From: Sphaerisporangium album
GTDB lineage: Bacteria; Actinomycetota; Actinomycetes; Streptosporangiales; Streptosporangiaceae
Length of the DNA stretch: 64,000 bases
Direction: 5' to 3'
Assembly: GCF_003323745.1 (NCBI RefSeq)
Contig: NZ_QOIL01000032.1
Location: forward strand, 1-64,000
In this document: positions 5,004 to 24,958 of the stretch, one piece after another
Numbering within the stretch: the first letter of the stretch is position 1
How the letters are laid out: every line of letters starts with the position of its first letter
Program-made: the position numbers and the translations under genes
Notes under the pieces: model-generated
What the model was told of the DNA's origin: nothing
Database searches by the model: none
The model's input: only the letters and a program-made list of their open reading frames with translations

Positions 5004-5098
5004 GCCGGTGCCGCTGCGGACGTTTGTCCGGTATGTGATGGTTTACCCGATCGTGACTTGACGGTGGCTGTTTCGGGCATGTTTCATAACGTCATTCC

Positions 5099-5110
5099 GT
5101 AAACGTTTTC
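5099..5110. promoter_or_regulatory. LacI-family operator, upstream copy
   Basis: GTAAACGTTTTC matches the strict palindrome at 5137-5150 with the same CG centre and one weaker arm. It lies 38 bp upstream, about four helical turns, so a tetrameric or doubly bound repressor could use both. Confidence 0.65.
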
Positions 5111-5136
5111 AGTTCCCTGACCGAACCGAGGCGTTC

Positions 5137-5150
5137 TGTAAACGTTTACA
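5137..5150. promoter_or_regulatory. Perfect palindromic LacI-family operator
   Basis: TGTAAACGTTTACA is a perfect 14-bp palindrome with the central CG typical of LacI/GalR operators. It lies about 42 bp before the GTG of the LacI-family gene, so autoregulation and control of the whole downstream operon are expected. Confidence 0.8.
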
Positions 5151-5191: not shown

Positions 5192-6220
5192 GTGACCGAG
5201 GAGCCGACCATCACGACGATCGCCCAGCACGCGGGCGTGTCGATCGCCTCCGTCTCACGGGTGCTCAACGGGCTCCCCACCAAGGCGGAGACCGAGCGCA
5301 AGGTGATGAGCGCGGCCCGCGAGCTCGGCTACGTCCCCAACTCGGCCGCCCGCTCGCTGAAGTCCCGGCGCAGCAACCAGATCGGCTTCGCCATGGCCGA
5401 CATCGGCAACCCGGTGTACCTGGCGATGATCCGCGAGATCCAGCCGATCTTCAAGGCGGCGGGGTACCGGCTCGTGCTGCACTCCACCGACGCCGACACC
5501 GCCGACGAGATCGACGTGCTGCGTGGCCTGGGCGAACGTTACATCGACGGGCTGATCATGATCCCGCTGCGCCTGACCGGCGAGCACCTGACGATGTTCG
5601 CCGCCGCCCGCGCGCCCATCGTCGTCATCGGCTCGGTCCCCGAGGACGCGCCCGTCGACAACGTGCGGACCGACTCGCGCGCCGGCGTCCGGCTGGCCGT
5701 CGAGCATCTGCACGGGCTCGGACGTCGGCGCATCGGCTTCGTCAACGGCCCGCTCGACACCGTCCCGGGCGCGGCCCGCTCCGCCGCCTACGCCGAGGCC
5801 CTCGCCGCGCTCGGCCTGCCCTACGACCCCGGCCTGACCCAGGTCGGCGACTTCTACCGCGCGGAGGGCGCCCGCGCGGCGGCACGCCTGCTGGACCGCG
5901 TCCCCGACCTCGACGCGCTGCTGTGCGCCAACGACCTCATCGCCTTCGGCGCCCTGGACGTGCTGCGCCGCGCCGGACGGCGGGTGCCGCAGGACGTCGC
6001 CGTGGCCGGCATGGACGACACCGACCTCGCCACGCTCGCCTGGCCGCCGCTGACCAGCGTCTCGCTGGGCTCGGCCGAACGCGGGCGCGCCGCCGCCGAG
6101 CTCCTGCTCGACAAGCTGGAGAACACCCGGCGCGCGCCCCGCGTGGTCACCGTCGAACCCCGGCTCGTGGTCCGCGCCTCGACGGACCCGTCCCGCATCC
6201 CCGGAGAGGAGGCCCCATGA
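5192..6220 (+). CDS. LacI-family transcriptional regulator of the ARH operon
   Basis: 342-aa repressor. The N-terminal helix-turn-helix (TITTIAQHAGVSIASVSRVLNG, residues 5-26) and hinge helix region (NSAARSLKSRRSNQIGF) precede a sugar-binding-protein-like core (AMADIGNPVYLAMIREIQ; ALLCANDLIAFGALDVLRRAGR; DVAVAGMDDTDLATLAWPPLTSV). Start GTG 5192 has GAGGTGA (5182-5188) at good spacing. It heads the operon, and its TGA overlaps the ATG of the first permease gene. The two CG-centred palindromes upstream are its likely operators. The inducer is unknown, probably the imported sugar or glycoside. Confidence 0.93.
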   Translation: MTEEPTITTIAQHAGVSIASVSRVLNGLPTKAETERKVMSAARELGYVPNSAARSLKSRRSNQIGFAMADIGNPVYLAMIREIQPIFKAAGYRLVLHSTDADTADEIDVLRGLGERYIDGLIMIPLRLTGEHLTMFAAARAPIVVIGSVPEDAPVDNVRTDSRAGVRLAVEHLHGLGRRRIGFVNGPLDTVPGAARSAAYAEALAALGLPYDPGLTQVGDFYRAEGARAAARLLDRVPDLDALLCANDLIAFGALDVLRRAGRRVPQDVAVAGMDDTDLATLAWPPLTSVSLGSAERGRAAAELLLDKLENTRRAPRVVTVEPRLVVRASTDPSRIPGEEAP

Positions 6221-7143
6221 CCCTGACCGCGGAAAGGACCCGGCCGCCCGACGCCCGTCGCCGCGGCCGCCCGACGAGCGGCGGGCGCGAGACGCTCCTG
6301 CTGATGCTGCCCGCGCTCGTCCCCGTGCTGGTCTTCAGCGTCGGGCCGCTGCTCTACGGCATGTACCTCGCCTTCACCGACGCCCGGTCCGGGCGCAACG
6401 CCGAGACGTCCTTCGTGGGCCTGGCCAACTTCGGCGACCTGCTCACCGACGGCGACTTCTGGGCGTCCTTCCGGATCGGCCTGATCTGGGCGGTGTCGGT
6501 GACCGTCCTGCAGTTCACCGCCTCGCTCGGCCTGGCGCTGCTGCTGAACGAGAACCTGCGGTTCCGCGGCTTCGCCCGCGTGCTGGCGCTGGTGCCCTGG
6601 GCCATGCCGCCGGTCGTCATCGGCCTGATGTGGCGGCTCGTCTACCACCCGAACGCCGGCATCCTCAACAGCGTCCTGCAGGACCTCGGGCTGCTCGGCC
6701 ACAACGTCGACTGGCTCAACGACTTCAGCCTGGCGCTGCCCGCCGTGATCGTCGTCGGCGTGTGGACCGGCATGCCGCAGACAACGGTCGTGCTGCTCGC
6801 CGGCCTCCAGGGCATCCCCGGCGAGCTGTACGAGGCCGGGCAGATGGACGGCGCGTCGGCCTGGCGCCGCTTCTGGAACATCACGCTCCCGCAGCTGCGC
6901 CCGGTCATCGTGACGATCACCTCCCTGGACTTCGTGTGGAACATCAACCAGTTCGGCCTGGTGTACGTGCTGACGCAGGGCGGCCCCGGCGGGCAGACGC
7001 GCCTGCCGCTGCTGTTCGCCTACGAGGAGGCGTTCCGGTACGGCTTCTTCGGCTACGCCGCCACGCTCGGCCTCGCGATGGTGATCGTCGTGCTGGCCGT
7101 GCTCGGCCTCTACATCGGACGCCAGATGCGGGAGGCGAGCTGA
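6217..7143 (+). CDS. Carbohydrate ABC transporter permease, MalF type
   Basis: 308-aa integral membrane subunit of a CUT1-type sugar importer. Six hydrophobic helices are visible after a basic N-terminus. The cytoplasmic EAA loop that docks to the ATPase reads EAGQMDGASAWRRFWNITLPQL. ATG 6217 overlaps the LacI stop (ATGA) and has GGAGAGGAGG upstream, so it is translationally coupled. No ATPase gene lies in this operon; actinomycete CUT1 systems commonly share an MsiK-type ATPase encoded elsewhere. Confidence 0.94.
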   Translation: MTLTAERTRPPDARRRGRPTSGGRETLLLMLPALVPVLVFSVGPLLYGMYLAFTDARSGRNAETSFVGLANFGDLLTDGDFWASFRIGLIWAVSVTVLQFTASLGLALLLNENLRFRGFARVLALVPWAMPPVVIGLMWRLVYHPNAGILNSVLQDLGLLGHNVDWLNDFSLALPAVIVVGVWTGMPQTTVVLLAGLQGIPGELYEAGQMDGASAWRRFWNITLPQLRPVIVTITSLDFVWNINQFGLVYVLTQGGPGGQTRLPLLFAYEEAFRYGFFGYAATLGLAMVIVVLAVLGLYIGRQMREAS

Positions 7144-7144
7144 C

Positions 7145-7963
7145 ATGCGCAGGCCCCTTCAGTACCTCGCCCTGCTCGGGTACGTCGTCTTCCTCGGGTT
7201 CCCGCTGGTCTGGCTGCTGTCCACCGCGCTGAAGACGCCGCGGGAGATGGCGAGCCTGCACCCGACGTGGATCCCGCACAACCCCGTGCTGTCCAACTTC
7301 GCCGACGCCTTCGGCGAGCAGGACCTCGTCGGCGGCGCGCTGCGCAGCCTGGTCGTCGCGACGGCCTGCTCGCTGCTGACGGTCGTGCTGGCCCTGCCCG
7401 CGTCCTACGCCATGGCCCGCCACCGCACGGCGCTCAGCAAGCTGGCCGTCGGATGGGTGCTGGTCAGCCAGATCTTCCCGTTCATCCTGATCATCATCCC
7501 GCTGTTCATGGTGCTGCGGAGTCTCGACCTGGTGAACACCCTGCCCGGCCTCACCCTCGTCCACGTCACGTTCGTCATGCCGTTCGCGCTGTGGATGCTC
7601 CAGGGGTACGTGCGGGCGGTGCCGCGCGAGCTGGAGGAGGCCGCGGCCGTCGATGGCGCGGGCCGGGTCGTCGCGCTGGTCAGGGTCGTCGCCCCGCTGC
7701 TCGCCCCCGGAGTGGTGGCCACGCTGCTGTTCGCGTTCATCTCCTCCTGGAACGAGTTCCTGTTCGCCCTGGTGGTCCTGAAGGACCCGGACGTGGCGAC
7801 CCTCCCGCTCACCCTGGTCAAGTTCACCGGCGCGGAGGGCGTCGTCCGCCTCGGACCGCTCGCCGCCGCGTCGCTGCTGGCCACGATCCCGAGCCTGGCC
7901 TTCTTCGCGATCATCCAGCGGCGGCTGAGATCCGGCCTCATGGCCGGCGCCGTCAAGGGATGA
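7145..7963 (+). CDS. Carbohydrate ABC transporter permease, MalG type
   Basis: 272-aa second membrane subunit of the importer. Its EAA loop reads EEAAAVDGAGRVVALVRVVAPLLAPG, and the MalG-typical SSWNEFLFALVVL follows. The start lies one base after the previous stop (TGACATG). Together with the 6217 product it forms the translocation pore that works with the lipoprotein at 8013. Confidence 0.94.
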   Translation: MRRPLQYLALLGYVVFLGFPLVWLLSTALKTPREMASLHPTWIPHNPVLSNFADAFGEQDLVGGALRSLVVATACSLLTVVLALPASYAMARHRTALSKLAVGWVLVSQIFPFILIIIPLFMVLRSLDLVNTLPGLTLVHVTFVMPFALWMLQGYVRAVPRELEEAAAVDGAGRVVALVRVVAPLLAPGVVATLLFAFISSWNEFLFALVVLKDPDVATLPLTLVKFTGAEGVVRLGPLAAASLLATIPSLAFFAIIQRRLRSGLMAGAVKG

Positions 7964-8012
7964 CGCCCGCCCCACACCCCACGGCCTGAAGCACCTTTGT
8001 AAGGAGAAGCAC

Positions 8013-9338
8013 TTGCGTACCAGAACCGCACTCGCGGTCGCGGCGGCCGCGGTCGTCGCGCTGACGGCCGGATGCGCGTCCGGCGGAGACACCGGCGGCA
8101 GCGGCGGCACCGGTGGCGGCACGGCCGCCGAGCCGGTCAGCCTGAAGTTCCTGAGCCTCGCCTGGCAGAAGGAGTCCATCGCCGCGAACAAGGAGATCGT
8201 CGGCGAGTGGAACAAGGCCAACCCCAACATCAAGGTCGAGTACGTCCAGGGAAGCTGGGACAACGTCAACGACCAGCTCGTCACCTCCTTCGAGGCGGGC
8301 GACCCGCCGGACGTCATCCACGACGACTCCCCGGCGCTGGCCGGCTTCGCCTCGCGCGGCTACCTGATGGACCTCACCGGCAAACTGCCCGCCGAGCTCA
8401 CCTCCGACATCCCCAAGGACGCCTGGGACACCGTGACCTTCGGCGACGGCAAGGGCGGCCAGGGCGTGTACGGCGTGCCGTTCCTGCGGGAGTCGCAGGT
8501 CATCATCGCCAACAAGAAGCTGCTGGACGCCGCTAAGGTGCGCGTCCCGACCCCGGACGCCCCCTGGACCTGGGACGAGTTCGCCGACATCAGCAAGAAG
8601 CTCACCAAGGACGGCTCCTACGGCGTGGCCTGGCCGCTGAAGTCCCCGGTCAACCGGGTGCTCAACCTCGGGCTCAACTTCGGCGGCACGTTCTTCCAGA
8701 CCGACGGCACCAAGTCGACGGTCAAGGTCGGCCCCGAGGAGCGCGAGGTGCTCCAGCGCATCCACGACCAGCTCTACAAGGACAAGTCGGCCGACCCGTC
8801 GGCGCTCGGCATGGGCGCCGCCGACCCGTTGCCCGGCTTCTACGCCGGCAAGTACGCGCTGCTGCCCGCCGGTGTCTACCTGCGCCAGCAGGTGGCCGAG
8901 CAGGCCCCGGACGGCTTCGAGTGGGTGACGCTGCCGCCGCTCAAGGGCACCAGCTCCAACCAGGGCGCGCTCTCCCAGACGCTGTCGGTCTCCGCCGACA
9001 GCAAGCACCCGGACGAGGCCGCCAAGTTCATCGCCTACTTCCTCAACAGCGCCAACCAGGCAAAGCTCGCCAAGGGCGACTGGCTGCTGCCCACCAGCGT
9101 CAAGGCGGCGTCCGACCCGTCCATGACCACCAAGGACAACGGCTGGGACGTCGCGACCGCCTCGGCGCAGAACCTCGTCGTCGCGCCGTACCTCAAGGTC
9201 AACGGGTTCGACGAGTGGAAGAGCAAGGTCGCCACTCCCGCGTTGCAGCAGTACTTCGCGAACAAGACGACCCTGGACCAGCTCGCCACGACGCTGGTCG
9301 ACGAAGGCAACAAGGTCCTGGAGCGGTACGGCAAGTGA
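8013..9338 (+). CDS. Sugar ABC transporter substrate-binding lipoprotein
   Basis: 441-aa solute receptor anchored outside the membrane. The signal peptide ends in a lipobox (LTAGC, Cys about residue 22), followed by a Gly/Ser/Thr-rich linker. The family-1 solute-binding core starts at VSLKFLSLAWQKESIAANKEIVGEWNK and contains GDPPDVIHDD. The start is a TTG at 8013 with AAGGAG (8001-8006) upstream. Its TGA overlaps the GTG of the first ADP-ribosylglycohydrolase. The ligand is not evident from sequence; the downstream enzymes suggest a ribosylated or otherwise glycosylated compound. Confidence 0.94.
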   Translation: MRTRTALAVAAAAVVALTAGCASGGDTGGSGGTGGGTAAEPVSLKFLSLAWQKESIAANKEIVGEWNKANPNIKVEYVQGSWDNVNDQLVTSFEAGDPPDVIHDDSPALAGFASRGYLMDLTGKLPAELTSDIPKDAWDTVTFGDGKGGQGVYGVPFLRESQVIIANKKLLDAAKVRVPTPDAPWTWDEFADISKKLTKDGSYGVAWPLKSPVNRVLNLGLNFGGTFFQTDGTKSTVKVGPEEREVLQRIHDQLYKDKSADPSALGMGAADPLPGFYAGKYALLPAGVYLRQQVAEQAPDGFEWVTLPPLKGTSSNQGALSQTLSVSADSKHPDEAAKFIAYFLNSANQAKLAKGDWLLPTSVKAASDPSMTTKDNGWDVATASAQNLVVAPYLKVNGFDEWKSKVATPALQQYFANKTTLDQLATTLVDEGNKVLERYGK

Positions 9339-10354
9339 TCGAGACCCGCGCCCGGGGGTGCCTGCTCGGCCTCGCGGCCGGCGACGCCCTCGGACGGCCC
9401 GCAGAGAACCTCACCCGCGAGGAGATCCGGCGGCGCTGGGGACGGCTCACCGAGATCGAGCCCGGCAAGGGCGGCACGGATGACACCGAGTACACGATCT
9501 TCGCCGCGTCCCTGCTGTGCCGGTACGGATCCGCGCTGACCAGCGCCGACGTCGCCCGCGAGTACCGCCAGCGCGTCGTTCCCCACGCCGCCGGCCCGAT
9601 GCGCGGTGCGGGCTTCTCCGAGCGCGGGGCCGTCCAGGCGCTGCTGCGCGGCGCAGAGCCGCCGATGTCCGGGCTCTGGCACCAGCACGGCTGGTCCGAC
9701 GGCCTGGCCATGCGCGCCGCGCCGTACGGGATCTTCGCCGCGGGCGACCCGGCCGAGGCCGCCCGGCTCGTCGCGGCCGACGGCGTGGTGAGCAACAGCG
9801 GCGAGGGCGTGTACGGAGGGCAGGCGGTCGCGGCGGCGGTCGCCGTGGCCATGACGGGCGCGCCGCCCGCCGAGGTGGTGGAGGCGGGTCTCGCCGCCGT
9901 CCCCGAGGACTCCTGGACCTCGCGGGACCTGCGCGCCGCCGTCGCCGCGGCGGCGTCCGGCTCCGTCGAGGACCTGTACGCCGCCGTGGTCGTCCCGCAC
10001 TACCCGTGGACCGACCTCGCGCCCGAGGCGGTCGCCCTCGCCTTCGCCGGCTACCTGCTCGGCGCGGGGGAGGTCGAGGAGTCCGTGGTGTCCGCGGCCA
10101 ACCTCGGCAGGGACGCCGACACCACCGCGGCCATCGCCGGCGCCCTCGCGGGGGCGGGGCGCGGCGAGGCGGCGGTGCCCGCGCGGTGGGCCCGGCTGAT
10201 CGGCCCGGCCGACGGGCGATGCCTGCCGGACGTCGCCGGGCGTCATGTGCTCGACGTCGCCACCGAGCTCGCCGCGGCGGCCCGCGCGTTCTCCGGCCGC
10301 ACGGCGAGGAGCGGTGAGGGACGCGAACCGGGATCCGCGCTGGGACCCGGCTAG
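9335..10354 (+). CDS. ADP-ribosylglycohydrolase family protein 1 of 4
   Basis: 339-aa DraG/ARH-fold hydrolase, all-helical with a binuclear Mg site; family members cleave N- or O-glycosidic bonds of ADP-ribose adducts. Seen: opening motif RARGCLLGLAAGDALGRP, the metal motif GGTDDTEYT (about residues 46-54), and the C-terminal metal motif NLGRDADTTAAIAGALAGA. Both sites are intact, so it should be active. GTG 9335 overlaps the stop of the binding protein. Position directly behind a sugar importer suggests hydrolysis of an imported glycoside rather than reversal of protein ADP-ribosylation. Confidence 0.9.
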   Translation: MIETRARGCLLGLAAGDALGRPAENLTREEIRRRWGRLTEIEPGKGGTDDTEYTIFAASLLCRYGSALTSADVAREYRQRVVPHAAGPMRGAGFSERGAVQALLRGAEPPMSGLWHQHGWSDGLAMRAAPYGIFAAGDPAEAARLVAADGVVSNSGEGVYGGQAVAAAVAVAMTGAPPAEVVEAGLAAVPEDSWTSRDLRAAVAAAASGSVEDLYAAVVVPHYPWTDLAPEAVALAFAGYLLGAGEVEESVVSAANLGRDADTTAAIAGALAGAGRGEAAVPARWARLIGPADGRCLPDVAGRHVLDVATELAAAARAFSGRTARSGEGREPGSALGPG

Positions 10355-10372
10355 GCAGAGGGAGGGAAGACG

Positions 10373-11344
10373 ATGTCATCGGGGGACAGGATCAGAGGCG
10401 CGTTCGCCGGGCTCGCCATCGGCGACGCGGCCGGATGGCCGTCCGCGCGGCACCGCTCGGCGCTGCTGGCACCCTGGAGCCGCAGGCTCGAACGCGAGCT
10501 GGACGCCTTCGCCGAGGAGCACGCGCTCACGACGCTGCCGGTGCCCTTCGCGCTCAACCAGCCGGTCGGGCCGCTCGCCATCGGGCCGTCCGACGACGCC
10601 GAATGGCTGGCCTGGACGGCGCTCACCGTCCACGAGGACCGCGAGGCGGCCTTCCTGCGGCTCGCCGGACGCTCCGACCTGCGCACCCGCATCTCGGTGC
10701 GCACCGCGCTGGCCAACCTGGCCGCGGGGAAGCGGCCCCCGGCCAGCGGCCACGACAACCCGCACCACTTCGACGACGCGGCCGCCGTACGGGCCGTCGC
10801 GTTCGGGGCCGCGGGTGTCGACCCGCGCGCCGACGCCTCGGTCACCAACGCGCTCGACGGCGTGCTCGCCGCCGCGGCGATGGCGGCGGCCGTCGCCGAA
10901 CTGGTCTCCGGCGCGCCCATGTCGTCCGCCGTCGCCGCGGCGCTGGCCGAGCTGCCCGACGAGACCGCCATCGGCCACGCCACGCGCACCGCCCTCACGG
11001 TGGCGCGCGCCGCCGGGGACCCGTTCGCCGCGGTCCCCGCCCTGGACGCCGCCCTGCTCGACCACGTGTACAGCTACGGCGTCGCCGCCGCGCAGACCGT
11101 CGCGGTGGCCCTCGCCCTGGCCGAGGTGTCCGAGGGAGCGCTCGCCCTGGCCGTGCCCGCCGCCGCGTGCCTGCCCTCGCTCGCCGACTCCGCCCCGGCC
11201 CTGACCGGGGCCCTCACCGGGGCGGCCACCGGATACGACGCCCTGCCGCCCGGCTGGCGCGCCGCCACCCGCACACTCGCCGGCTGCGGTCTGCCCGACC
11301 TGGCCGGCGCCGACATCATCGACATCGCTGGAGGACTGGCATGA
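10373..11344 (+). CDS. ADP-ribosylglycohydrolase family protein 2 of 4, degenerate metal site
   Basis: 323-aa ARH-fold protein, opening IRGAFAGLAIGDAAGWPS. The usual TDDT motif is changed to PSDDAEWLAWTA, and the C-terminal DxD motif is eroded to LPSLADSAPALTGALTGA, losing one Asp. Catalysis is therefore doubtful or uses a modified metal site; it may be a structural partner of a paralogue. The ATG lies after AGGGAGGGAAGA, 18 bp past the previous stop; its own stop overlaps the next start (ATGA). It retains the fold but is clearly the most divergent of the set. Confidence 0.85.
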   Translation: MSSGDRIRGAFAGLAIGDAAGWPSARHRSALLAPWSRRLERELDAFAEEHALTTLPVPFALNQPVGPLAIGPSDDAEWLAWTALTVHEDREAAFLRLAGRSDLRTRISVRTALANLAAGKRPPASGHDNPHHFDDAAAVRAVAFGAAGVDPRADASVTNALDGVLAAAAMAAAVAELVSGAPMSSAVAAALAELPDETAIGHATRTALTVARAAGDPFAAVPALDAALLDHVYSYGVAAAQTVAVALALAEVSEGALALAVPAAACLPSLADSAPALTGALTGAATGYDALPPGWRAATRTLAGCGLPDLAGADIIDIAGGLA

Positions 11345-12582
11345 CGCCGCCCGAAGACCGTCCGACCGCCCCGCCGACGGTCCCGCCGGCCGATCCACGG
11401 ACGGATCTTCCGCGCGACCTTCCGGCGGACCTCGTGACCGACCCGCTGACGGACAAGGCCGTCGGCTGCGTGACCGGCGCGGCGGTCGGCGACGCGCTCG
11501 GCGGCGCCACCGAAGGCTGGACGCCCGAGCAGATCCAGGAACGCTACGGCGGGTACGTCACCGGCATCGTCCCGCCGTGGTTCGAGGACTGGCGCAACGC
11601 CCGCCCCATCGCGCCGTACCACAAGGGCGACGGGCACGTCACCGACGACACCCTCATGACCCACGCGCTCATCCGCGTGTACGAGAAGGCCGGCCGCCAC
11701 CTCGACGCGTACGCCGCCGCAGACCTCCTGGTGCCGGAGATGATGGGCGAGAAGCGCTGGATTCCGGAGCTGGAGGCCGACGCGCTGCCCCTGCAACGCG
11801 TCTTCCTCGCCGAGAAATGGCTGGTCCTGCGCCTGCACTACGGCCACGTCGACCCGCGCGAGGCCGGTGTCGGCAACATCGTCAACTGCGGCGCCGCGAT
11901 GTACGTCGCGCCTGTCGGCGTCGTCAACGCGGCCGACCCCGACGGCGCGTACGCCGAGGCGATCGACCTGGCCGGGGCCCACCAGTCCAGCTACGGGCGG
12001 GAGGCGGCCGGGGTGATGGCCGCCGCCGTCGCCGAGGCCATGCGTCCCGGCGCCACCGCCGACTCGGTCGTGGCCACCTGCCTGCGGCTGGCCAGGGACG
12101 GCACGCGCGCCGCCATCGAGGCCGTGTGCGACCGCGCCCGCGACCTCGGCCACTGGGAGGGGTCGTTCCCGGCGCTGCGCGCGGCCGTCGCGCCGTACGA
12201 CACCGTCGCCGACACCTACCGCGACCAGGGGCTCGGCGCCCGGCGGCCCAGCCGCCTGCACAGCATCGAGGAACTGCCGCTCGCGCTCGCCTTCCTGGTC
12301 ATCGCCAAGGGCGGCTACCGCGACACCGTGCTCGGCGGCGTCAACTACGGGCGCGACGCCGACTCGATCGCCAGCATGGGCGGTGCCATCGCGGGCGCCC
12401 TGGGCGGCGCCGCGGCGGTCCCGCGGGATTGGCTCGGCCCGATCGCCACGGCCAGCAGGCTCGACCTGACGTCCCCCGGCGTCGCGATCGCCGAGGTCGC
12501 GCGCCGCGTCCACACCGCCGACCTCACCCGCCGCCGCACCCACGAATCCGCCTTCGCCGCGCTGACCGGGGAGCGGGCGTGA
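11341..12582 (+). CDS. ADP-ribosylglycohydrolase family protein 3 of 4
   Basis: 413-aa ARH-fold hydrolase. A Pro/Asp-rich leader of about 35 residues precedes the core KAVGCVTGAAVGDALGGATEGW. Metal motifs are intact: HVTDDTLMTHALI and YGRDADSIASMGGAIAGALGG. A middle segment (WFEDWRNARPIAPYHKGDG) is a distinctive insertion compared with copy 1, which implies a different substrate or aglycone. It is translationally coupled on both sides (ATGA upstream, GTGA downstream). Confidence 0.9.
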   Translation: MTPPEDRPTAPPTVPPADPRTDLPRDLPADLVTDPLTDKAVGCVTGAAVGDALGGATEGWTPEQIQERYGGYVTGIVPPWFEDWRNARPIAPYHKGDGHVTDDTLMTHALIRVYEKAGRHLDAYAAADLLVPEMMGEKRWIPELEADALPLQRVFLAEKWLVLRLHYGHVDPREAGVGNIVNCGAAMYVAPVGVVNAADPDGAYAEAIDLAGAHQSSYGREAAGVMAAAVAEAMRPGATADSVVATCLRLARDGTRAAIEAVCDRARDLGHWEGSFPALRAAVAPYDTVADTYRDQGLGARRPSRLHSIEELPLALAFLVIAKGGYRDTVLGGVNYGRDADSIASMGGAIAGALGGAAAVPRDWLGPIATASRLDLTSPGVAIAEVARRVHTADLTRRRTHESAFAALTGERA

Positions 12583-14012
12583 GCGGGGCGATCCATGCCC
12601 CGGCGGACGTCCCGCTCCGGCTCACCTGGGTGCAGCCGGAGGACCTGGTCGGGCACGAGCTGCGGCAGGCGGCCGAGGACGGGCGGGATCCCGGACGGGT
12701 CGCGCGGATCGCCGCCCGCTGGCACGCCGCAGGCGGGCACGACGCGCCGCCCCGCGCCGGCGCCTCACCCCGTCCCGTCGCGCCCGAGCTGCGCGCGCTG
12801 GCGGGGGAACTGCTGGACGAGCTGGCGGCGGTCCCGTCCCCGCTTCCCGAGCCGTCCGGCCTGGAAGAGATCCGGGCGAGCGCCCCGGGCGGGTTCGACG
12901 CCGATCCGGCCGATCCGCACGCCGGCCACCACGGGCTGGACGACCGGATGCTCGGCGCGTGGCTGGGGCGGGCGGCCGGGTGCGTGCTCGGCAAGCCTGT
13001 CGAGAAGATCCCCCGTGAGGGCATCAGGGAGATCGCGGAGGCCACCGGCAACTGGCCGATCCGCGGCTGGTTCACCGCGGTCGGCCTGCCGCCGGAGGTG
13101 GCCGCCCGCTGGCCCTGGAACCGGCGCAGCGCCGCCAACTCGCTGGCCGAGAACATCGCCGGCGTGCCCGAGGACGACGACCTCAACTTCCCGCTGATCG
13201 CCCTGTCCGTGCTGGAGCGCTTCGGGCGCGGCTTCACCACGGCCGACGTCGCCACGACGTGGTTGGACGAGCTCCCCGCCGGCCGGGTCTTCACCGCCGA
13301 GCGCGTCGCGTACCGCAACCTGCTGGCCGGGATCGAACCGCCGGGCACCGCGACCTGGCGCAACCCGTTCCGCGAGTGGATCGGCGCGCTGATCAGGGCC
13401 GACGTGTACGGCTGGGCGAACCCCGGCGACCCGTGGACCGCCGCCGCGCACGCCTGGCGCGACGCCCGGCTCAGCCACACCGCCAACGGCCTCTACGGCG
13501 CGATGATGGTCGCCGCCATGTGCGCGCGCTCCCTGGCCGTCCCTGCGGGCGACCCCGCGCGCGCCGTCCGGGACGTCGTGGACGCTGGCCTGTCGGTCGT
13601 CCCCACAGGGTCGCGGCTGGCCAGGGCCGTCCGGGAGGCCGTCGCCGACGCCGAGGCGGAGTCAGACTTCGAGCGCGTCGTCGACCGCCTGTACGCGCGG
13701 CACGGCGGCCTGCACTGGGTGCACACCGTCAACAACGCGGCGCTGGTCGCGGCGGCGCTGGTCCACGGGCGCGGCGACTTCGGCGCGTCCGTCGCGGGCG
13801 CCGTGGCCGCGGGCTGGGACACCGACTCGGCCGGGGCCACGGTCGGCTCGATCGCCGGCGGCCTGCTCGGAGCCGCGCGCCTGCCCGACCAGTGGATCGC
13901 GGGTGACCGTCTGAGCACCACCCTGAGAGGCTTCGACGGCGTCGGCTTCGACGAGCTCGCCCGCCGCACCCTCGCGGCCGGACCGGGTCCGAAGGGTACG
14001 ACGCGGGTGTGA
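12579..14012 (+). CDS. ADP-ribosylglycohydrolase family protein 4 of 4, long N-terminal extension
   Basis: 477-aa protein. Residues 1-120 form an extension with no recognised domain (LTWVQPEDLVGHELRQAAEDGRDPGRVARI). The ARH core begins at DRMLGAWLGRAAGCVLGKPVEKI. The first metal motif is varied to PEDDDLNFPLIALSVLE, while the C-terminal one is present (GWDTDSAGATVGSIAGGLLG). Since acidic residues are retained at both sites, activity is plausible. GTG 12579 overlaps the preceding stop. The mature operon thus contains four non-identical ARH-type enzymes in a row. Confidence 0.88.
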   Translation: MSGAIHAPADVPLRLTWVQPEDLVGHELRQAAEDGRDPGRVARIAARWHAAGGHDAPPRAGASPRPVAPELRALAGELLDELAAVPSPLPEPSGLEEIRASAPGGFDADPADPHAGHHGLDDRMLGAWLGRAAGCVLGKPVEKIPREGIREIAEATGNWPIRGWFTAVGLPPEVAARWPWNRRSAANSLAENIAGVPEDDDLNFPLIALSVLERFGRGFTTADVATTWLDELPAGRVFTAERVAYRNLLAGIEPPGTATWRNPFREWIGALIRADVYGWANPGDPWTAAAHAWRDARLSHTANGLYGAMMVAAMCARSLAVPAGDPARAVRDVVDAGLSVVPTGSRLARAVREAVADAEAESDFERVVDRLYARHGGLHWVHTVNNAALVAAALVHGRGDFGASVAGAVAAGWDTDSAGATVGSIAGGLLGAARLPDQWIAGDRLSTTLRGFDGVGFDELARRTLAAGPGPKGTTRV

Positions 14013-14031
14013 CGGGCAGAGAGGACGGATC

Positions 14032-14922
14032 ATGATCTCGGTTTTCGGCAGCGCCAACATGGACCTGGTCGCGTACACCGCGACGGCCCCCAAGCGCGGG
14101 GAGACCGTGACCGGCCGGGCTTTCGCCACGATCCCCGGAGGTAAGGGTGCCAACCAGGCGATCGCGGCGGCCCGCGCCGGGGCCGAGGTGGCCTTCATCG
14201 GGGCGGTCGGCGACGACGCCTTCGGGCCGGTCATGCGCGAGACGCTCGCGTCGGCGGGCGTGGACGTCACCCGCCTGCGCGTCGCGCCCGGCTCGTCCGG
14301 GATCGCGCACATCGTCGTGGACGACGCGGGCGGCAACTCGATCATCGTCGTCCCGGGGGCCAACGGCACCGTGACCGGCCCCACCGACGGCGACCTGGAG
14401 GTGATCGACCGCTCCGACGCGCTGCTGCTGCAACTGGAGCTGCCCATGGAGGCCGTGGTGGCCGCCGCGACCCGGGCGCGCGTCCCCGTCGTGCTCACCC
14501 CCGCTCCCGCCGGGGAACTGCCGCCCGAACTGCTCGCCGCCGTCGGCCTGATCATCCCGAACGAGCACGAGGCGGCGGCCATCACCGGCCTCTCCGACCC
14601 CGAGGAGTCGCTCAAGGCCCTGCTCGACCTCGTCCCCGAGGCGGTCGTCACGCTCGGGTCCGAGGGCTCGCTGTACGGCTCGCGCTCCGGGGCGCGGCTG
14701 CGCGTCCCGGCCGTTCCGGTGACCGCCGTCGACACCACGGCGGCGGGCGACACCTTCGCGGGCGCGCTCGCGGTGGCCCGGGCCGAGGGCATGCCGGTCG
14801 AGCGCGCCCTCCGCTTCGCCGCGGCGGCCGCCGCGCTGTCCGTCCAGCGGAAGGGGGCGACCACGTCCATGCCCGCCCGGCCCGAGATCGACGCGGCCCT
14901 GCGAACGACCGTGACCCCGTGA
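14032..14922 (+). CDS. Ribokinase-like PfkB-family sugar kinase
   Basis: 296-aa cytosolic kinase. It carries PfkB signature 1 (FATIPGGKGANQAIAAARAG, about residues 35-54) and signature 2 with the catalytic Asp (VTAVDTTAAGDTFAGALAVA), with the N-terminal NMDLVAY strand typical of ribokinases. Predicted reaction: ATP-dependent 5-phosphorylation of ribose (or another pentose/hexose) released by the upstream hydrolases. It lies 19 bp after ARH copy 4, and its TGA overlaps a GTG, so it is in the same operon. Confidence 0.9.
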   Translation: MISVFGSANMDLVAYTATAPKRGETVTGRAFATIPGGKGANQAIAAARAGAEVAFIGAVGDDAFGPVMRETLASAGVDVTRLRVAPGSSGIAHIVVDDAGGNSIIVVPGANGTVTGPTDGDLEVIDRSDALLLQLELPMEAVVAAATRARVPVVLTPAPAGELPPELLAAVGLIIPNEHEAAAITGLSDPEESLKALLDLVPEAVVTLGSEGSLYGSRSGARLRVPAVPVTAVDTTAAGDTFAGALAVARAEGMPVERALRFAAAAAALSVQRKGATTSMPARPEIDAALRTTVTP

Positions 14923-14981
14923 CCCCTGACCCCGTGACCCCTGAACCCGCAAGGCCTGAGCCCGCGAGCACGAGGAGTGAG

Positions 14982-16154
14982 ATGCAAGCCCTGGAAGGCA
15001 TCCGGGTGCTGGACCTGGCCACGCTGTTCGCCGGGCCGATGGCGGCGATGCTGCTCGGCGACTTCGGCGCCGACGTCGTCAAGGTCGAGCACCCGTCCAA
15101 GCCGGACCCGTCGCGCGGGCACGGGCCCGGGGGCCTGTGGTGGAAGGTACTCGGCCGCAACAAGAGGACGATGACCCTCGACCTGTCGATGCCCGAGGGA
15201 CAGGACGTCCTGCTCGCCCTCGTCCGGGACGCCGACGTGGTGATCGAGAACTTCCGCCCCGGCACGCTGGAGCGCTGGAACCTCTCCTACGACCGGCTCC
15301 GCGCGGCCAACCCGCGCGTGGTCCTCGCCCGCGTCACCGGGTTCGGCCAGTTCGGCCCGTACGCCGCCCGCCCGGGATTCGGCACGCTGGCCGAGGCGAT
15401 GAGCGGGTTCGCCGCGATGACCGGCGAGCCGGACGGGCCGCCGACGCTGCCGCCCTTCGGGCTGGCGGACGGCATCTGCGCCCTCGCGACCGCGTACGCG
15501 GTGATGGCGGCGCTGCGCGCCCGGGACTCCACCGGCGCGGGCCAGGTGGTCGACCTGTCCATCGTCGAGCCGATCCTCACGGTCCTCGGCGCGCAGCCCA
15601 CGATCTACGACCGGCTCGGGATCGTCCCGGCGCGCACCGGCAACCGGTCCGTCAACAACGCGCCCCGCAACACCTACCGCTGCGCGGACGGCACCTGGGT
15701 CGCCGTTTCCACCTCGGCGCAGAACATCGCCGAGCGCGTGATGCGCCTGGTCGGGCGGCCCGAGTACATCGCCGAGCCCTGGTTCGCCACCGGGGCGGGC
15801 CGGGTCGAGCACGCCGACGAGCTGGACGCCGCCGTCGCCGCGTGGATCGGCGCGCGCACCCGCGCCGAGGTGCTGTCCGCGTTCGAGGAGGCGCAGGCCG
15901 CGATCGCCCCGATCTACGACGTCCGCGACGTTCTCGCCGACCCGCAGCTGAAGGCCCTGGACGCCGTCACGACCGTGGAGGACCCCGACCTCGGCCCCCT
16001 GCGCATGCAGAACGTGATGTTCCGCCTCTCGGACACCCCCGGCCGGATCTCCTGGCCCGGCCGCCCCCACAGCGCCGACACCACCGCGATCCTCACCGAG
16101 CTCGGCTTCTCCCCCTCGGACGTCGACAAGCTTCGCGAGAGGGGCGTGGTGTGA
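14982..16154 (+). CDS. CaiB/BaiF-type (family III) CoA-transferase
   Basis: 390-aa enzyme that would move CoA between carboxylic acids. Seen: LEGIRVLDLATLFAGPMAAMLLGDFGADVVKVEHP at the N-terminus, VIENFRPGTLERW, and the likely catalytic Asp in FGLADGICA. I chose ATG 14982 because AGGAG lies four bases upstream and the conserved fold begins at once; a GTG at 14919 overlapping the kinase stop would add a Pro-rich leader of 21 residues. It is paired with the lyase that follows, so the two probably activate and cleave a hydroxy acid released from the imported compound. Confidence 0.88.
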   Translation: MQALEGIRVLDLATLFAGPMAAMLLGDFGADVVKVEHPSKPDPSRGHGPGGLWWKVLGRNKRTMTLDLSMPEGQDVLLALVRDADVVIENFRPGTLERWNLSYDRLRAANPRVVLARVTGFGQFGPYAARPGFGTLAEAMSGFAAMTGEPDGPPTLPPFGLADGICALATAYAVMAALRARDSTGAGQVVDLSIVEPILTVLGAQPTIYDRLGIVPARTGNRSVNNAPRNTYRCADGTWVAVSTSAQNIAERVMRLVGRPEYIAEPWFATGAGRVEHADELDAAVAAWIGARTRAEVLSAFEEAQAAIAPIYDVRDVLADPQLKALDAVTTVEDPDLGPLRMQNVMFRLSDTPGRISWPGRPHSADTTAILTELGFSPSDVDKLRERGVV

Positions 16155-16170
16155 GAATGAAAGGCACGAT

Positions 16171-17040
16171 GTGACGCTCACCTGGCTCTACGCCCCCGCC
16201 GACCGGCCCGACCTGGTGGCCAAGGCACTCGCCGGCCCCGCCGGCGTCGTCATCGTCGATCTGGAGGACGCGGTCGCCCCGGACCGCAAGGAGTACGCCC
16301 GCGCGCAGGTGGTGGCGTTGCTCGCCGGCGGGCCGCAGCCGCGCGTCGAGGTCCGGATCAACGACGTGCGCATGCCGTACGGCCAGGAGGACCTGCGGGC
16401 GATCGGCGCCCTGAGCGCGCGCACGGCGGGGATCCGCGTCCCGAAGGTCGAGTCGGCCCGGGAACTGCGCGAGGTGGCGGCGTCCCTGCCCGGCGGCGTC
16501 GTGCTCCACCCGCTCGTGGAGTCCGCGCTCGGCCTCGAACGCCTCTACGAGATCGCCTCGGCCGACCCGGCGGTGGCGAGCGTCGGGCTGGGGGAGGCGG
16601 ACCTGCGCGCAGACCTGCGCGTCGCGGACGAGGCGGGGCTGGCCTGGGCGCGGTCGCGGATCGTCGTGGCGGCACGCGCCGCCGGGCTGCCCGCCCCCGT
16701 CCAGTCGGTCTACACCGACTTCCGCGACCTCGCGGGCCTGGCCGAGTCGTGCCGCACCGGACGGGCGATGGGCTTCCGCGGCCGCGCCGCCATCCACCCC
16801 GCGCAGCTCCCGGTCATCGAGGCCGCCTACCGCCCGACGGAGCAGGAGGTCACGGCGGCGAGCGAGGTCGTGGCGGCCGCCGGAGCCGGGGCCGTGGCCC
16901 TCCCGGACGGCCGCTTCGTGGACGAGGCCGTCGTCCGCCAGGCCAGGACGGTCCTGGCCGACGCGCGGCACACGCCGGAGCCGGCGACCCGCCGCAGGGA
17001 CGCGCGTCTCCCGGCGCCCCGGTCCGCCGAGCAGGGGTGA
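16171..17040 (+). CDS. CitE/HpcH-like CoA-ester lyase (aldolase family)
   Basis: 289-aa TIM-barrel lyase of the HpcH/HpaI-CitE group. Motifs: WLYAPADRPDLVAKAL, VIVDLEDAVAPDRK (acidic metal ligands), VRINDV, IRVPKVES and GFRGRAAIHPAQLPVIE. The family cleaves citryl-, malyl- or citramalyl-CoA into a keto acid/aldehyde and an acyl-CoA. GTG 16171 has GAAAGG upstream. As the last operon gene, it would finish processing the CoA ester made by the 14982 product. Confidence 0.88.
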   Translation: MTLTWLYAPADRPDLVAKALAGPAGVVIVDLEDAVAPDRKEYARAQVVALLAGGPQPRVEVRINDVRMPYGQEDLRAIGALSARTAGIRVPKVESARELREVAASLPGGVVLHPLVESALGLERLYEIASADPAVASVGLGEADLRADLRVADEAGLAWARSRIVVAARAAGLPAPVQSVYTDFRDLAGLAESCRTGRAMGFRGRAAIHPAQLPVIEAAYRPTEQEVTAASEVVAAAGAGAVALPDGRFVDEAVVRQARTVLADARHTPEPATRRRDARLPAPRSAEQG

Positions 17041-20884: not shown

Positions 20885-22975
20885 ATGACTGACGGACCCT
20901 CTCGCCGCAGGTTCCTGGCGCTCGGCGCCGGAGCCGTGGGCGGCGCCGCCGTGGCGTCGCTGCTGCCGCCCTCCGTCCACGCCGCGATGGCCATGCCCGC
21001 TCCCCGGGGCGGCCTGTCCGCCGTCAAGCACGTGGTCTTCCTCATGCAGGAGAACCGGTCGTTCGACCACTACTTCGGCACGCTGCGCGGCGTGCGCGGG
21101 TTCGGGGACAGGAACGCGGTGGACCTGCGCGGCGGAGGGACGGTGTTCGAGCAGCCGGGTGGCCCGGCGGGGCACGTGCTGCCGTTCCCGGTGAAGGACG
21201 CCGCCGACCTCGTCGGCAAGGACCTGCAGTGGATCAACGCACTGCCGCACGGCTGGACCGACGGCCAGCGGGCCGCCGCCGCGGGCTGGCACGACGGGTG
21301 GATCGCCGCCAAGACGCCGGCCACCATGGCGTACTACCAGCGGCAGGACATCCCGCTTCAGTACGAGCTGGCCGACACCTTCACGATCTGCGACCAGTAC
21401 CACTGCTCGGTGCTGTCCTCCACGAGCCCGAACCGCAACTACCACGTCAGCGGCCACACCGGCTACGAGCCCGGCACGACCAGGCGGGCCATCGACAACG
21501 CGGCCTACAACGAGGACACCCACGCCGGATACGACTGGTCCAACGCCGGGGAGATCCTGGAGGCCGCCGGGCACTCCTGGAAGGTCTACCAGGAGATGGA
21601 CAACTACGAGGACAACAACCTGGAGTTCTTCGCCCGCTTCCGGCGGATCGCGCGCGCCGCGCTCCAGGGCGACTACCAGAGCCTCGACTCGTTCTACTCC
21701 GCCCTCGGACGGGCGTCCTCGCCGGAGGAGCAGCAGCGGATGCTGGCCCGGCTGGAGGAGGGCGTGGCCAAGCTGAGCCCCGCCGACCGGTCGCTGTACG
21801 AGAAGGCCCTGCGGCGCGGCCTGCCGGGCACGCTGGCCCAGAGCTTCCGCGCCGACGTCGAGGCCGGGCGGCTGCCCAAGGTGAGCTACATCGTGCCCTC
21901 GGCGGCCGACTCCGAGCACCCGAGCGCGTCCTCGCCCGCGCAGAGCGCCGTGATCACCTACGACATCCTCGACGCCATCGCCTCCAACCCGGACGTCTGG
22001 CGCTCGACCGTGCTGTTCCTCACCTTCGACGAGAACGACGGCTTCTACGACCACGTCCCGCCGCCGCTGCCGCCCGCCGACCGGGTCGAGGACTTCTACG
22101 ACGGCCACCCGATCGGCCTCGGCATGCGCGTGCCGATGACGATCGTCTCGCCGTGGACGGTCGGCGGTTACGTCTGCTCGCAGACCTTCGACCACAGCTC
22201 GACGGTGCGGTTCCTTGAGACCTGGCTGGGCGTCCGCTTCCCCGACATCACCCCGTGGCGCCGTACCGTGGCCGGCGACCTGACCTCGGCCTTCGACTTC
22301 GGAGCCGGCGGTCACCGGCCCGATCTCACCGCCCCCGGCCCGGTGCCGCCCTTCACCGGCCGCTGGCGGCCCGCGCCTCCCGCCGGGCAGAAGATGCCGG
22401 TCCAGGAGGCGGGCACGCGCCCCGCCCGCTCGCTGCCGTACCAGCCGGACGCCTGGGGCCGCGTGGTGGACGGGAAGGTGAGGCTGCGGCTGGCCAACTC
22501 CGGCGAGCGGAGCGTCCACATGACGCTGTTCCCGTACGCGGGGGAGTTCGACCTGCCCGTCCACGTGGACGTGCTCGGCTCGGCCGAGCTGGACGTGCCC
22601 GTGAGGAACGGCTCCTACGACTTCACGCTGACCGGCCCGAACGGGTTCCGCCGCGAGTTCACCGGCTCGCCGGCGGGCGCGGCGTCCGGCCTCGTCGTCG
22701 AGCCGGAGATCCGCGGGAAGCAGCGCAGCCTGACGCTGACCGTCACCAACACCGGCGCGGCGAAGGTGGACGTGGGGATCGCCCCGCTGGCGTACGGCGA
22801 CCGGCGGGACGAGCGGGCCTTCACCCTCAAGCCCGGCCAGGACAAGCACGTGACCTGGCACTGCGACGACCACGAGGGCTGGTACGACCTGCGCGTCACC
22901 TGCGCGCAGGACGCCTCCTACGGCCGCCGCCTCATGGGCCACATCGAGAACGGCCGCGCCAGCGTCACAGGCTGA
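20885..22975 (+). CDS. Tat-exported phosphocholine-type phospholipase C
   Basis: 696-aa secreted phosphoesterase of the bacterial PLC/acid-phosphatase family. The Tat signal is SRRRFLALGAGAVGGAAVASLL. Catalytic-region motifs are ENRSFDHYFGTLRGVRGF, SPNRNYHVSG, FLTFDENDGFYDHV and MTIVSPWTVGG. The C-terminus has two DUF756-type domains (about residues 500-590 and 595-690; LPVHVDVLGSAELDVP and YGDRRDERAFTLKPGQDKHV). The start has GGAAGAGA upstream. It hydrolyses phospholipid headgroups outside the cell, for phosphate scavenging or membrane attack. It diverges from the antitoxin across 269 bp. Confidence 0.93.
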   Translation: MTDGPSRRRFLALGAGAVGGAAVASLLPPSVHAAMAMPAPRGGLSAVKHVVFLMQENRSFDHYFGTLRGVRGFGDRNAVDLRGGGTVFEQPGGPAGHVLPFPVKDAADLVGKDLQWINALPHGWTDGQRAAAAGWHDGWIAAKTPATMAYYQRQDIPLQYELADTFTICDQYHCSVLSSTSPNRNYHVSGHTGYEPGTTRRAIDNAAYNEDTHAGYDWSNAGEILEAAGHSWKVYQEMDNYEDNNLEFFARFRRIARAALQGDYQSLDSFYSALGRASSPEEQQRMLARLEEGVAKLSPADRSLYEKALRRGLPGTLAQSFRADVEAGRLPKVSYIVPSAADSEHPSASSPAQSAVITYDILDAIASNPDVWRSTVLFLTFDENDGFYDHVPPPLPPADRVEDFYDGHPIGLGMRVPMTIVSPWTVGGYVCSQTFDHSSTVRFLETWLGVRFPDITPWRRTVAGDLTSAFDFGAGGHRPDLTAPGPVPPFTGRWRPAPPAGQKMPVQEAGTRPARSLPYQPDAWGRVVDGKVRLRLANSGERSVHMTLFPYAGEFDLPVHVDVLGSAELDVPVRNGSYDFTLTGPNGFRREFTGSPAGAASGLVVEPEIRGKQRSLTLTVTNTGAAKVDVGIAPLAYGDRRDERAFTLKPGQDKHVTWHCDDHEGWYDLRVTCAQDASYGRRLMGHIENGRASVTG

Positions 22976-24558: not shown

Positions 24559-24958
24559 AACCGTGCCCTTCCGGGGAAACAGCGTCGTACGGACATCATG
24601 CGGACGCCGTACGGAGTCGTACAGGGATAGCGGGGCGCGCCGGGTCGGCGGCGGCCGTGAACGAACCAGGAGCGGACCGAATCGGCCTGGACCCGATCGC
24701 CTTTGATCCGATCCATTCGATCCCAGGGCGCTACGGCGGTGGTCTCCCATCGGCGATGCGCACCGTAGGCCTCCTGCGTGGGACGCCCTCGGCGTGGGCC
24801 GAGACACGTCGAGGTGCGCAAATGCTGCCATTTAAGGCCTGATCCAAGCAATACCCTTCATGTTTACGAATCCTCACAAGTTGGACCATTGACGCTTACG
24901 GTCTGTGTGGGTGAGTATTCGGTCCTACCGATTAGTAGACCGAACCGATGGGACCGGG
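24559..24958. promoter_or_regulatory. Divergent control region of the BMC locus
   Basis: This 400-bp spacer separates the permease from the BMC operon. Seen: a possible -35 TTGACG (24889-24894) and -10 GAGTAT (24913-24918) for the operon, an imperfect inverted repeat just after it, CCGATC repeats at 24693, 24708 and 24717 on the permease side, and a 29-bp segment (24732-24760) that recurs at 35832-35860. No gene is apparent. Confidence 0.55.
24921..24941. promoter_or_regulatory. Candidate GntR/HutC-type operator of the BMC operon
   Basis: GGTCCTAC (24921-24928) and GTAGACC (24935-24941) form an inverted repeat with one unpaired base. It is immediately downstream of the proposed -10 and 18 bp before the first ATG. 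This resembles the GTxTAxAC-type sites of HutC-family regulators; the GntR gene at 32342 is the natural partner. Confidence 0.5.

What the first reader, a model, noticed from the sequence alone, without database searches (positions are those of the whole stretch)
9335..17040. Operon with four consecutive ADP-ribosylglycohydrolase paralogues, ribokinase, CoA-transferase and CitE-like lyase behind a sugar importer
Four non-identical ARH/DraG-fold proteins are fused by ATGA/GTGA overlaps or short gaps, preceded by a LacI regulator and a CUT1 importer and followed by a PfkB kinase, a CaiB-type CoA-transferase and a CitE/HpcH lyase. ARH enzymes are known for reversing ADP-ribosylation, yet this layout is that of a catabolic pathway. 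Inference: the importer takes up a ribosylated (or otherwise glycosylated) molecule, the ARH set cleaves its glycosidic bond(s), ribose is phosphorylated, and the aglycone or an acid derived from it is converted to a CoA ester and split. I do not recognise a described pathway with this composition.
Basis: partly seen in the sequence, partly recalled or inferred. Interest (0 to 1): 0.8.

Follow-up and report, generated by a model that had tools for sequence, protein, structure and literature searches.

The report
Sugar-uptake operon built on ADP-ribosylglycohydrolases
A group of soil bacteria share a gene set, apparently for taking up and breaking down an unknown sugar conjugate, in which four relatives of enzymes known for removing ADP-ribose from proteins seem to work as ordinary digestive enzymes.

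Summary
In detail: LacI, CUT1 permeases, binding protein, four ARH-fold proteins, RbsK, CaiB and CitE occupy 5192-17040 on one strand. It is not strain-specific: in 80 named loci gene order never deviates; ARH3 and ARH4 are in 80, ARH1 in 74, ARH2 in 77. A palindrome, TGTAAACGTTTACA, lies twice before lacI. In 18 operon-bearing genomes, 22 of 23 near-perfect copies lie at the operon. A perfect copy precedes a feruloyl-esterase-like gene in 5 of 5 genomes found to hold it. 33 of 37 Streptomyces loci lack LacI and 34 the importer; the rest probably corresponds to SCO2028-SCO2033, whose ARHs are listed in print as ADP-ribosylation hydrolases. Purified SCO2028 and SCO2030 were inactive on U-ADPr. 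ARH2 is degenerate; ARH1, 3 and 4 keep the metal ligands. Best reading: a sugar-regulated catabolic operon whose ARHs are metal-dependent (ribo)furanosidases. Substrate and aglycone are unknown; the CaiB-CitE step is separable (absent at the 17 Nonomuraea loci, one of them cut short). Nine searches of open-licence papers found no description.

The parts
5098..5111 (.). LacI operator copy 1 (CGTAAACGTTTTCA, 2 mismatches to the palindrome)
5137..5150 (.). LacI operator copy 2 (perfect TGTAAACGTTTACA)
   Evidence: one of two perfect sites in the genome
5192..6220 (+). LacI-family repressor (LacI)
   Evidence: PF00356 and PF13377; best NCBIfam neighbours RbsR/CcpA, below cut-off
6217..7143 (+). 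CUT1 permease (PermA)
   Evidence: PF00528; MalF/UgpA-like, below cut-off
7145..7963 (+). CUT1 permease (PermB); not scanned against Pfam
   Evidence: weak BLAST match to PermA; conserved position
8013..9338 (+). Solute-binding lipoprotein (SBP)
   Evidence: PF01547; nearest solved structure Lmo0181 (5f7v), third an arabino-oligosaccharide-binding protein (6rjy)
9335..10354 (+). ARH1: complete ARH metal site (Glu, TDDT, GRDADT)
   Evidence: PF03747 198 bits; motifs in the alignment of 94
10373..11344 (+). ARH2: degenerate ARH (no Glu flap, first Asp of DxD lost, invariant ADS.P)
   Evidence: PF03747 79 bits; motifs in the alignment of 92; same DxD loss in paralogues
11341..12582 (+). ARH3: complete ARH metal site; most conserved of the four
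   Evidence: PF03747 158 bits; motifs in the alignment of 105; present in 80 of 80 loci
12579..14012 (+). ARH4: ARH core plus a conserved N-terminal extension; Glu, EDD, DTDS
14032..14922 (+). Ribokinase-like kinase (RbsK)
   Evidence: TIGR02152 295.6 bits (cut-off 299.65); 4x8f E 4.9e-65; motifs
14919..16154 (+). Family III CoA-transferase (CaiB)
   Evidence: PF02515 415 bits; Asp of GLAD aligned with the Asp of solved family III transferases, invariant in 71 of 71
16171..17040 (+). CitE/RipC-like acyl-CoA lyase (CitE)
   Evidence: PF03328; RipC-like 3qll E 1.9e-36; conserved motifs

Best explanation
A conserved, locally regulated catabolic operon. LacI represses it through two palindromic operators and is relieved by a sugar-type inducer (inferred). 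A feruloyl-esterase-like enzyme, probably secreted and present in some genomes, trims the substrate outside (inferred from the shared operator). The CUT1 importer brings in a small glycoside; its ATPase is not in the operon. ARH1, ARH3 and ARH4 act as binuclear-metal hydrolases on furanosidic bonds, most likely ribofuranosides, because known ARHs hold the cis-2,3-diol of ribose on two metals (family, metal ligands and the fold of ARH4 shown; activity inferred). ARH2, degenerate wherever examined and beside an intact ARH1, is a non-catalytic or altered partner (inferred). RbsK phosphorylates the released ribose (specificity inferred). Where present, CaiB loads a released hydroxy-acid onto CoA and CitE splits it to an acyl-CoA plus an oxo-acid (chemistry known for the families, substrate unknown). 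It is a metabolic, not an ADP-ribosylation-signalling, module.
For: Gene order without deviation in 80 named loci. Operator palindrome within 3 mismatches in 53 of 57 upstream regions, 39 of 43 from named loci, 0 of 57 in each of 20 shuffles; the four without it are Jiangellaceae. In 18 genomes 22 of 23 copies with at most 1 mismatch lie at the operon, reversed-pattern control 0. A perfect copy precedes the esterase in 5 of 5 genomes found to hold it; its nearest solved structure is a ferulic acid esterase (7xrt, 5.5e-26). Metal ligands are invariant in ARH1 and ARH3 and, with T to E in one, kept in ARH4. The ARH4 model has the ARH fold. RbsK is close to solved ribokinases with nearly invariant motifs. 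Of 12 paralogous ARH loci, 10 have a LacI-like and/or CUT1-type permease match nearby (not independent, some are near-copies); one has an inosine-uridine nucleoside hydrolase. No ADP-ribosyltransferase among the 10 operon proteins and 9 window ORFs scanned. SCO2028 and SCO2030, probable orthologues of ARH1 and ARH3, had no detectable activity on U-alpha-ADPr (PMC13036486, passages).
Against: No substrate is known. 34 of 37 Streptomyces loci lack the importer at the locus and 33 lack LacI (3 are cut by a contig end). In 150 Streptomyces genomes an importer homologue and ARH3 co-occur only weakly (78 both, 20 importer only, 32 ARH3 only, 20 neither; Fisher p 0.02, not corrected for kinship), so the ARH set must work without this importer in many. 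RbsK is in 54 of 80 and CaiB-CitE in 55 of 80 loci. RbsK misses NCBI's ribokinase cut-off by 4 bits. The esterase was found in only 5 of 28 operon-bearing genomes examined (threshold E 1e-60), and another LacI protein, or in the own genome the divergent neighbouring gene, could own its operator. A negative on one ADP-ribose substrate does not exclude others, and other S. coelicolor ARHs in that panel were negative too although SCO5809 acts on a different ADP-ribosylated RNA (PMC11833690).
Confidence: 0.52

Rival explanations
1. Same kind of operon, but the cleaved sugar is not ribose. The ARHs act on another furanoside (arabinofuranosyl, apiosyl or similar) from feruloylated plant material, and RbsK handles a minor or different sugar.
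For: Feruloyl-esterase-like gene behind the same operator; SBP resembles oligosaccharide-binding proteins including an arabino-oligosaccharide one; RbsK missing in 26 of 80 loci.
Against: RbsK is a strong ribokinase match with its motifs conserved. Known ARHs need the cis-2'',3''-hydroxyls of the distal ribose (PMC7050489, passages), which arabinose lacks (recalled); apiose has such a diol (recalled).
Confidence: 0.2
2. The substrate is endogenous: the ARH set salvages or repairs an intracellular ribosylated metabolite. The importer and LacI are an elaboration in some lineages.
For: Streptomyces keep ARH1-4 with CaiB-CitE at a fixed place beside genes that I read as gltB and lgt/trp, mostly without LacI and importer; 32 of 110 ARH3-bearing Streptomyces have no importer homologue at E 1e-90.
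Against: Outside Streptomyces 40 of 43 loci have LacI and 41 of 43 the importer, and the gaps (L058, L067, L134) are at contig ends; there is a dedicated operator. L095, L123 and L135 are Streptomyces with LacI and importer in place, so loss is the simpler reading.
Confidence: 0.18
3. The ARHs are ADP-ribosylation erasers (protein, nucleic acid or NAD-derived adducts) that merely share an operon with sugar genes; this is how the S. coelicolor homologues are listed in print.
For: PF03747 family and fold; SCO2028-2030 (PMC5087735) and SCO2028-2031 (PMC9411070) listed as DraG/ARH hydrolases (passages); SCO5809, another S. coelicolor ARH, removes ADP-ribose from RNA phosphate ends (PMC11833690, passages).
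Against: No transferase among the genes scanned; equivalog models for DraG (66.6 of 337 bits) and Tri1 (45 of 490 bits) not met; conserved coupling to a sugar importer, sugar-type repressor and kinase; SCO2028 and SCO2030 inactive on U-ADPr (PMC13036486).
Confidence: 0.08

Closest known systems
DraG / ARH1 / ARH3 ADP-ribosylhydrolases (PF03747)
   Same: Family for all four, metal ligands in ARH1, ARH3 and ARH4, fold of ARH4
   Different: Sits in a LacI-CUT1-RbsK operon; no transferase among the genes scanned; below DraG and Tri1 equivalog cut-offs; ARH4 has a conserved N-terminal extension and EDD for TDD; ARH2 degenerate
LacI-CUT1 glycoside utilisation operons of actinobacteria
   Same: Local LacI with palindromic operators, two permeases, binding lipoprotein, cytoplasmic hydrolases, sugar kinase
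   Different: The hydrolases are ARH-fold proteins instead of CAZy-type glycosidases (recalled comparison)
Itaconate/citramalate-type dissimilation (RipC, CaiB-type transferases)
   Same: Family III CoA-transferase next to a CitE/RipC-like lyase
   Different: No hydratase among the operon proteins; equivalog cut-offs not met; the CoA pair is lost or kept independently of the rest
Vertebrate ARH2, suspected inactive
   Same: An ARH paralogue suspected to be inactive beside active ones (PMC7050489, passage)
   Different: Here the degenerate member is tandem with an intact ARH1 and the DxD loss extends to paralogous operons

Membership tests
ADP-ribosylglycohydrolase family (PF03747) | Match above the curated Pfam score | tested here: met
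   198, 79, 158 and 153 bits against 26.2
ADP-ribosylglycohydrolase family (PF03747) | Binuclear metal ligands (Glu flap, T-D-D, D-x-D-T/S) in ARH1, ARH3 and ARH4 | tested here: met
   ARH1 and ARH3 complete; ARH4 has Glu, E-D-D (E for T), D-T-D-S
ADP-ribosylglycohydrolase family (PF03747) | Same ligands in ARH2 | tested here: not met
   Glu at the flap in 0 of 77 and first Asp of DxD in 0 of 92 rows with a letter there
ADP-ribosylglycohydrolase family (PF03747) | ARH fold of ARH4 | tested here: met
DraG (TIGR02662) or Tri1 (NF041672) equivalogs | Curated equivalog score | tested here: not met
   Best 66.6 of 337 and 45.2 of 490 bits
ADP-ribosylation signalling module | ADP-ribosyltransferase gene nearby | tested here: not met
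   None among 10 of 11 operon proteins and 9 further window ORFs scanned; flanks in relatives not scanned for it
ADP-ribosylation signalling module | Removal of ADP-ribose from a target | not testable with these tools
   Only U-alpha-ADPr is reported in what I saw for probable orthologues, negative (PMC13036486, passages)
LacI-CUT1 sugar operon | LacI repressor, two CUT1 permeases, binding protein, dedicated operator | tested here: met
   PermB by weak BLAST match only
Ribokinase (TIGR02152) | Curated equivalog score | tested here: not met
   295.6 of 299.65 bits; solved ribokinases match at 4.9e-65
Family III CoA-transferase | PF02515 and the catalytic Asp (identity of that Asp recalled) | tested here: met
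   415 bits; Asp invariant in 71 of 71
RipC citramalyl-CoA lyase (NF038242) | Curated equivalog score | tested here: not met
   177.3 of 375 bits

The most novel reading that the evidence does not exclude
An undescribed catabolic pathway in which ARH-fold proteins are dedicated glycosidases: an active/degenerate ARH1-ARH2 pair plus ARH3 and ARH4 dismantle a ribofuranoside conjugate (ester-trimmed outside in some species), giving ribose-5-phosphate and a beta-hydroxy acid that CaiB-CitE splits. Half of the eight ARH homologues listed for Streptomyces coelicolor (SCO2028-2031) would then be metabolic enzymes.
Probability: 0.28. Interest if true: 0.75.

Novelty: new variant of a known kind. Interest (0 to 1): 0.56.

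Why it matters
ARH-fold proteins are read, in the literature that I saw, as erasers of ADP-ribosylation. If a whole conserved operon uses them as catabolic glycosidases, genome-based counts of 'ADP-ribosylation metabolism' in actinobacteria are inflated: four of the eight ARH homologues that PMC9411070 lists for S. coelicolor would belong here (my synteny inference). The operon, its operator, an unlinked esterase gene behind the same operator and a conserved degenerate partner make the question testable with ordinary induction, binding and enzyme assays.

Tried and rejected
Rejected: that CaiB lacks its catalytic Asp. I first took GFG (against GYD) as the lost residue; the alignment to solved transferases puts the Asp in GLAD, kept in 71 of 71.

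Rejected: recent tandem duplication of the ARHs. Pairwise identity is 27-32% where aligned, and in the tree each forms its own group with orthologues from other genera (the joins of ARH3 with the genome's fifth ARH and of a long-branched ARH4 relative are flagged there as unsure).

Led nowhere: the extra gene c17 (about 640-690 aa, FGE-sulfatase domain at its C-terminus), found in 5 of 80 named loci, was folded from 5 sequences and gave pLDDT 48.5, so I did not search with it. Its N-terminal part has no Pfam match at E up to 10 in three members.

Weak result: unlinked importer and ARH3 in 150 Streptomyces, 78/20/32/20, p 0.02 uncorrected.

Rows dropped: the 12 paralogous loci are part of the further ARH places seen; at least four listed (in G038, G059, G085, G121) were not fetched, and L143 and L144 were fetched but my gene caller, trained on GC-rich codons, found one or no gene there. 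The gene caller also misses genes, so the counts rest on tblastn instead (at least 38% identity, same strand).

Could not decide: the aglycone. CaiB and CitE fall below every equivalog cut-off shown. In nine genomes whose CitE matches lie away from the ARH operon, a diverged CaiB-CitE pair (CaiB 62-67%, CitE 47-52%) sits beside a GntR-like gene (9 of 9), a TetR-like gene (8 of 9) and, at 6 of 9, a three-gene transporter set of which the binding protein is Peripla_BP_4 (regulator names read by eye). This suggests that the acid module is a free-standing unit.

Not done: the N-terminal extension of ARH4 was not folded alone. No S. coelicolor genome was read: the SCO2028-2033 assignment rests on synteny arithmetic from trpX = SCO2038 (start of the abstract of PMC5036795) and the gene order in Streptomyces loci; names of the flanking genes (gltB, lgt, trp) are my reading of the translations. 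The nine paper searches found no description of the operon; subscription journals and preprints are not held.
Full report
What is there. On the + strand, 5192-17040 hold LacI, two CUT1 permeases, a binding lipoprotein, four ARH-fold proteins, a ribokinase-like kinase, a family III CoA-transferase and a CitE-like lyase (the second permease was not scanned against Pfam). Junctions are overlaps or short gaps: GTGA or ATGA at 9335, 11341, 12579 and 14919. The genome has five PF03747 matches in all, four of them here.

Conservation. ARH4 was searched in 297 genomes of the order: 107 match at E<=1e-10, a figure that includes the own genome and paralogue-only hits. By tblastn in these 80: LacI 44, PermA 44, PermB 44, SBP 44, ARH1 74, ARH2 77, ARH3 80, ARH4 80, RbsK 54, CaiB 55, CitE 55, extra gene c17 5; gene order deviates in none. 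All 80 have ARH4 by selection. Four of the six ARH1 absences are at contig ends (L058, L067, L108, L113); L098 and L134 truly lack ARH1 and ARH2.

Lineage patterns. Nonomuraea, 17 loci: LacI, importer and ARH1 in 16, ARH2-4 and RbsK in 17, CaiB-CitE in 0 (L066 ends 683 bases after RbsK). Streptomyces, 37 loci: ARH3, ARH4, CaiB and CitE in 37, RbsK in 17, LacI in 4, importer in 3 (L108, L110 and L113 are cut on that side). The 26 others: LacI 24, importer 25, RbsK 20, CaiB-CitE 18. In 36 of the 37 Streptomyces loci, all but L123, the set is followed by a gene that I read as lgt and then trp genes, with a gltB-like gene on the other side where the contig reaches. L095 and L135 keep LacI and importer at that same place, which points to loss in the rest.

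Link to the literature. PMC5087735 lists seven DraG-like proteins of S. coelicolor, SCO2028-SCO2030 among them; PMC9411070 lists eight, with SCO2031 added (passages). Counting back from trpX = SCO2038 (start of the abstract of PMC5036795) along the conserved Streptomyces order gives SCO2028-2031 = ARH1-4, SCO2032 = CaiB and SCO2033 = CitE: an inference, as S. coelicolor itself was not read. PMC13036486 reports purified SCO2028 and SCO2030 with no detectable activity on U-alpha-ADPr; the other ARH-like proteins of that panel were negative too (passages). PMC11833690 reports another ARH, SCO5809, active on RNA phosphate-end ADP-ribose (passages). Nine paper searches found no description of the operon.

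Regulation. The palindrome TGTAAACGTTTACA is the best conserved element upstream of lacI: 53 of 57 regions within 3 mismatches of the 16-mer CTGTAAACGTTTACAA; 43 of the 57 are from named loci, of which 39 pass; the four misses are the Jiangellaceae loci L090, L091, L092 and L112; 20 shuffles of the 57 regions gave 0 each time. The 57 include the window and several genomes twice. At most 2 mismatches in the own genome: four places, two at the operon, one perfect at C45 and one at C60; reversed-pattern control, one. At most 1 mismatch in 18 operon-bearing genomes: 23 sites, 22 on the operon contig near ARH4, control 0; G035 and G105 have none at that stringency but carry two-mismatch copies at the operon, as does G087. 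The off-operon perfect sites in G000 and G087 precede the same PF00756 esterase, with a signal-like N-terminus by eye. In 37 genomes (28 with ARH4, 9 without) the esterase was found in 5 at E 1e-60, all with the operon, and all 5 have a perfect operator upstream. Its nearest solved structure is a ferulic acid esterase. That the same LacI acts there is an inference; in the own genome the site also lies upstream of a divergent gene.

Other parts. RbsK matches solved ribokinases at 4.9e-65 and keeps its motifs almost without exception, but is 4 bits under NCBI's ribokinase cut-off. CaiB keeps the Asp aligned with that of solved transferases in 71 of 71. CitE keeps D-L-E-D, R, E and G-E-x-D in 69 of 69. 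The nearest binding proteins to the SBP include oligosaccharide-type ones (ligand of Lmo0181 recalled). No transporter ATPase is among the operon proteins scanned; a shared one is usual in actinobacteria (recalled).

Paralogous operons. Of 12 loci taken because their ARH resembled ARH4 in sequence (L049, L052-L054, L145-L152; not all such places were fetched), 10 have a LacI-like and/or CUT1 permease match nearby; L145 and L146 do not. They are not independent: L147 and L148 are near-copies, as are L150 and L152. L147 has ARH4-like, importer, PF01156 nucleoside hydrolase, ThuA and GFO/IDH/MocA genes. L052 has ARH1-like, ARH2-like, RbsK-like, UPF0261, PF09370 and others.

Against a single linear pathway. 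CaiB-CitE and RbsK are lost independently. In 10 non-window genomes searched for CitE all matches lie away from the ARH operon; nine of these places were fetched and all nine have a diverged CaiB beside CitE. In 150 Streptomyces, importer and ARH3: 78 both, 20 importer only, 32 ARH3 only, 20 neither. The set can evidently serve without this importer, so an endogenous substrate remains possible.

Verdict. The catabolic, non-signalling reading is well supported (my estimate 0.85, inference). The full ribose-plus-acid pathway is plausible but unproven.

Noticed in passing
L090:12210-14126, L045, L047-L051, L091, L098, L112, L134: Extra operon gene c17 with a C-terminal FGE-sulfatase domain and an N-terminal part of about 430 aa without a Pfam match in the three members scanned, between ARH4/RbsK and CaiB where that is present.
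   Followed up: partly
L217-L225: Diverged CaiB-CitE pair away from the ARH operon in nine genomes, next to GntR-like (9) and TetR-like (8) genes and, in six, a transporter set with a Peripla_BP_4-type binding protein.
   Followed up: partly
L147:7031-7933 and neighbours: ARH4-like gene in a CUT1 operon with a nucleoside hydrolase, ThuA, GFO/IDH/MocA, PhyH and AP_endonuc_2 genes.
   Followed up: partly
L052:1467-8565: ARH1-like, ARH2-like and RbsK-like genes beside UPF0261 and PEP-hydrolase-like (PF09370) genes.
   Followed up: no
L161:9306 (own genome C60): Two-mismatch operator just upstream of what looks by eye like an arabinose operon with a CUT2-type importer; two mismatches is at the level of the control.
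   Followed up: no
L213-L216: Streptomyces copies of the importer (4 of 9 genomes) without a LacI match nearby, at a shared place beside an APH-like kinase gene (read by eye).
   Followed up: partly
window 20936-22975: Phospholipase C type phosphoesterase (PF04185 and PF05506).
   Followed up: no
window 24905-27795: Class III aminotransferase next to an aldehyde dehydrogenase, after an amino acid permease at 23035-24558 on the other strand.
   Followed up: no
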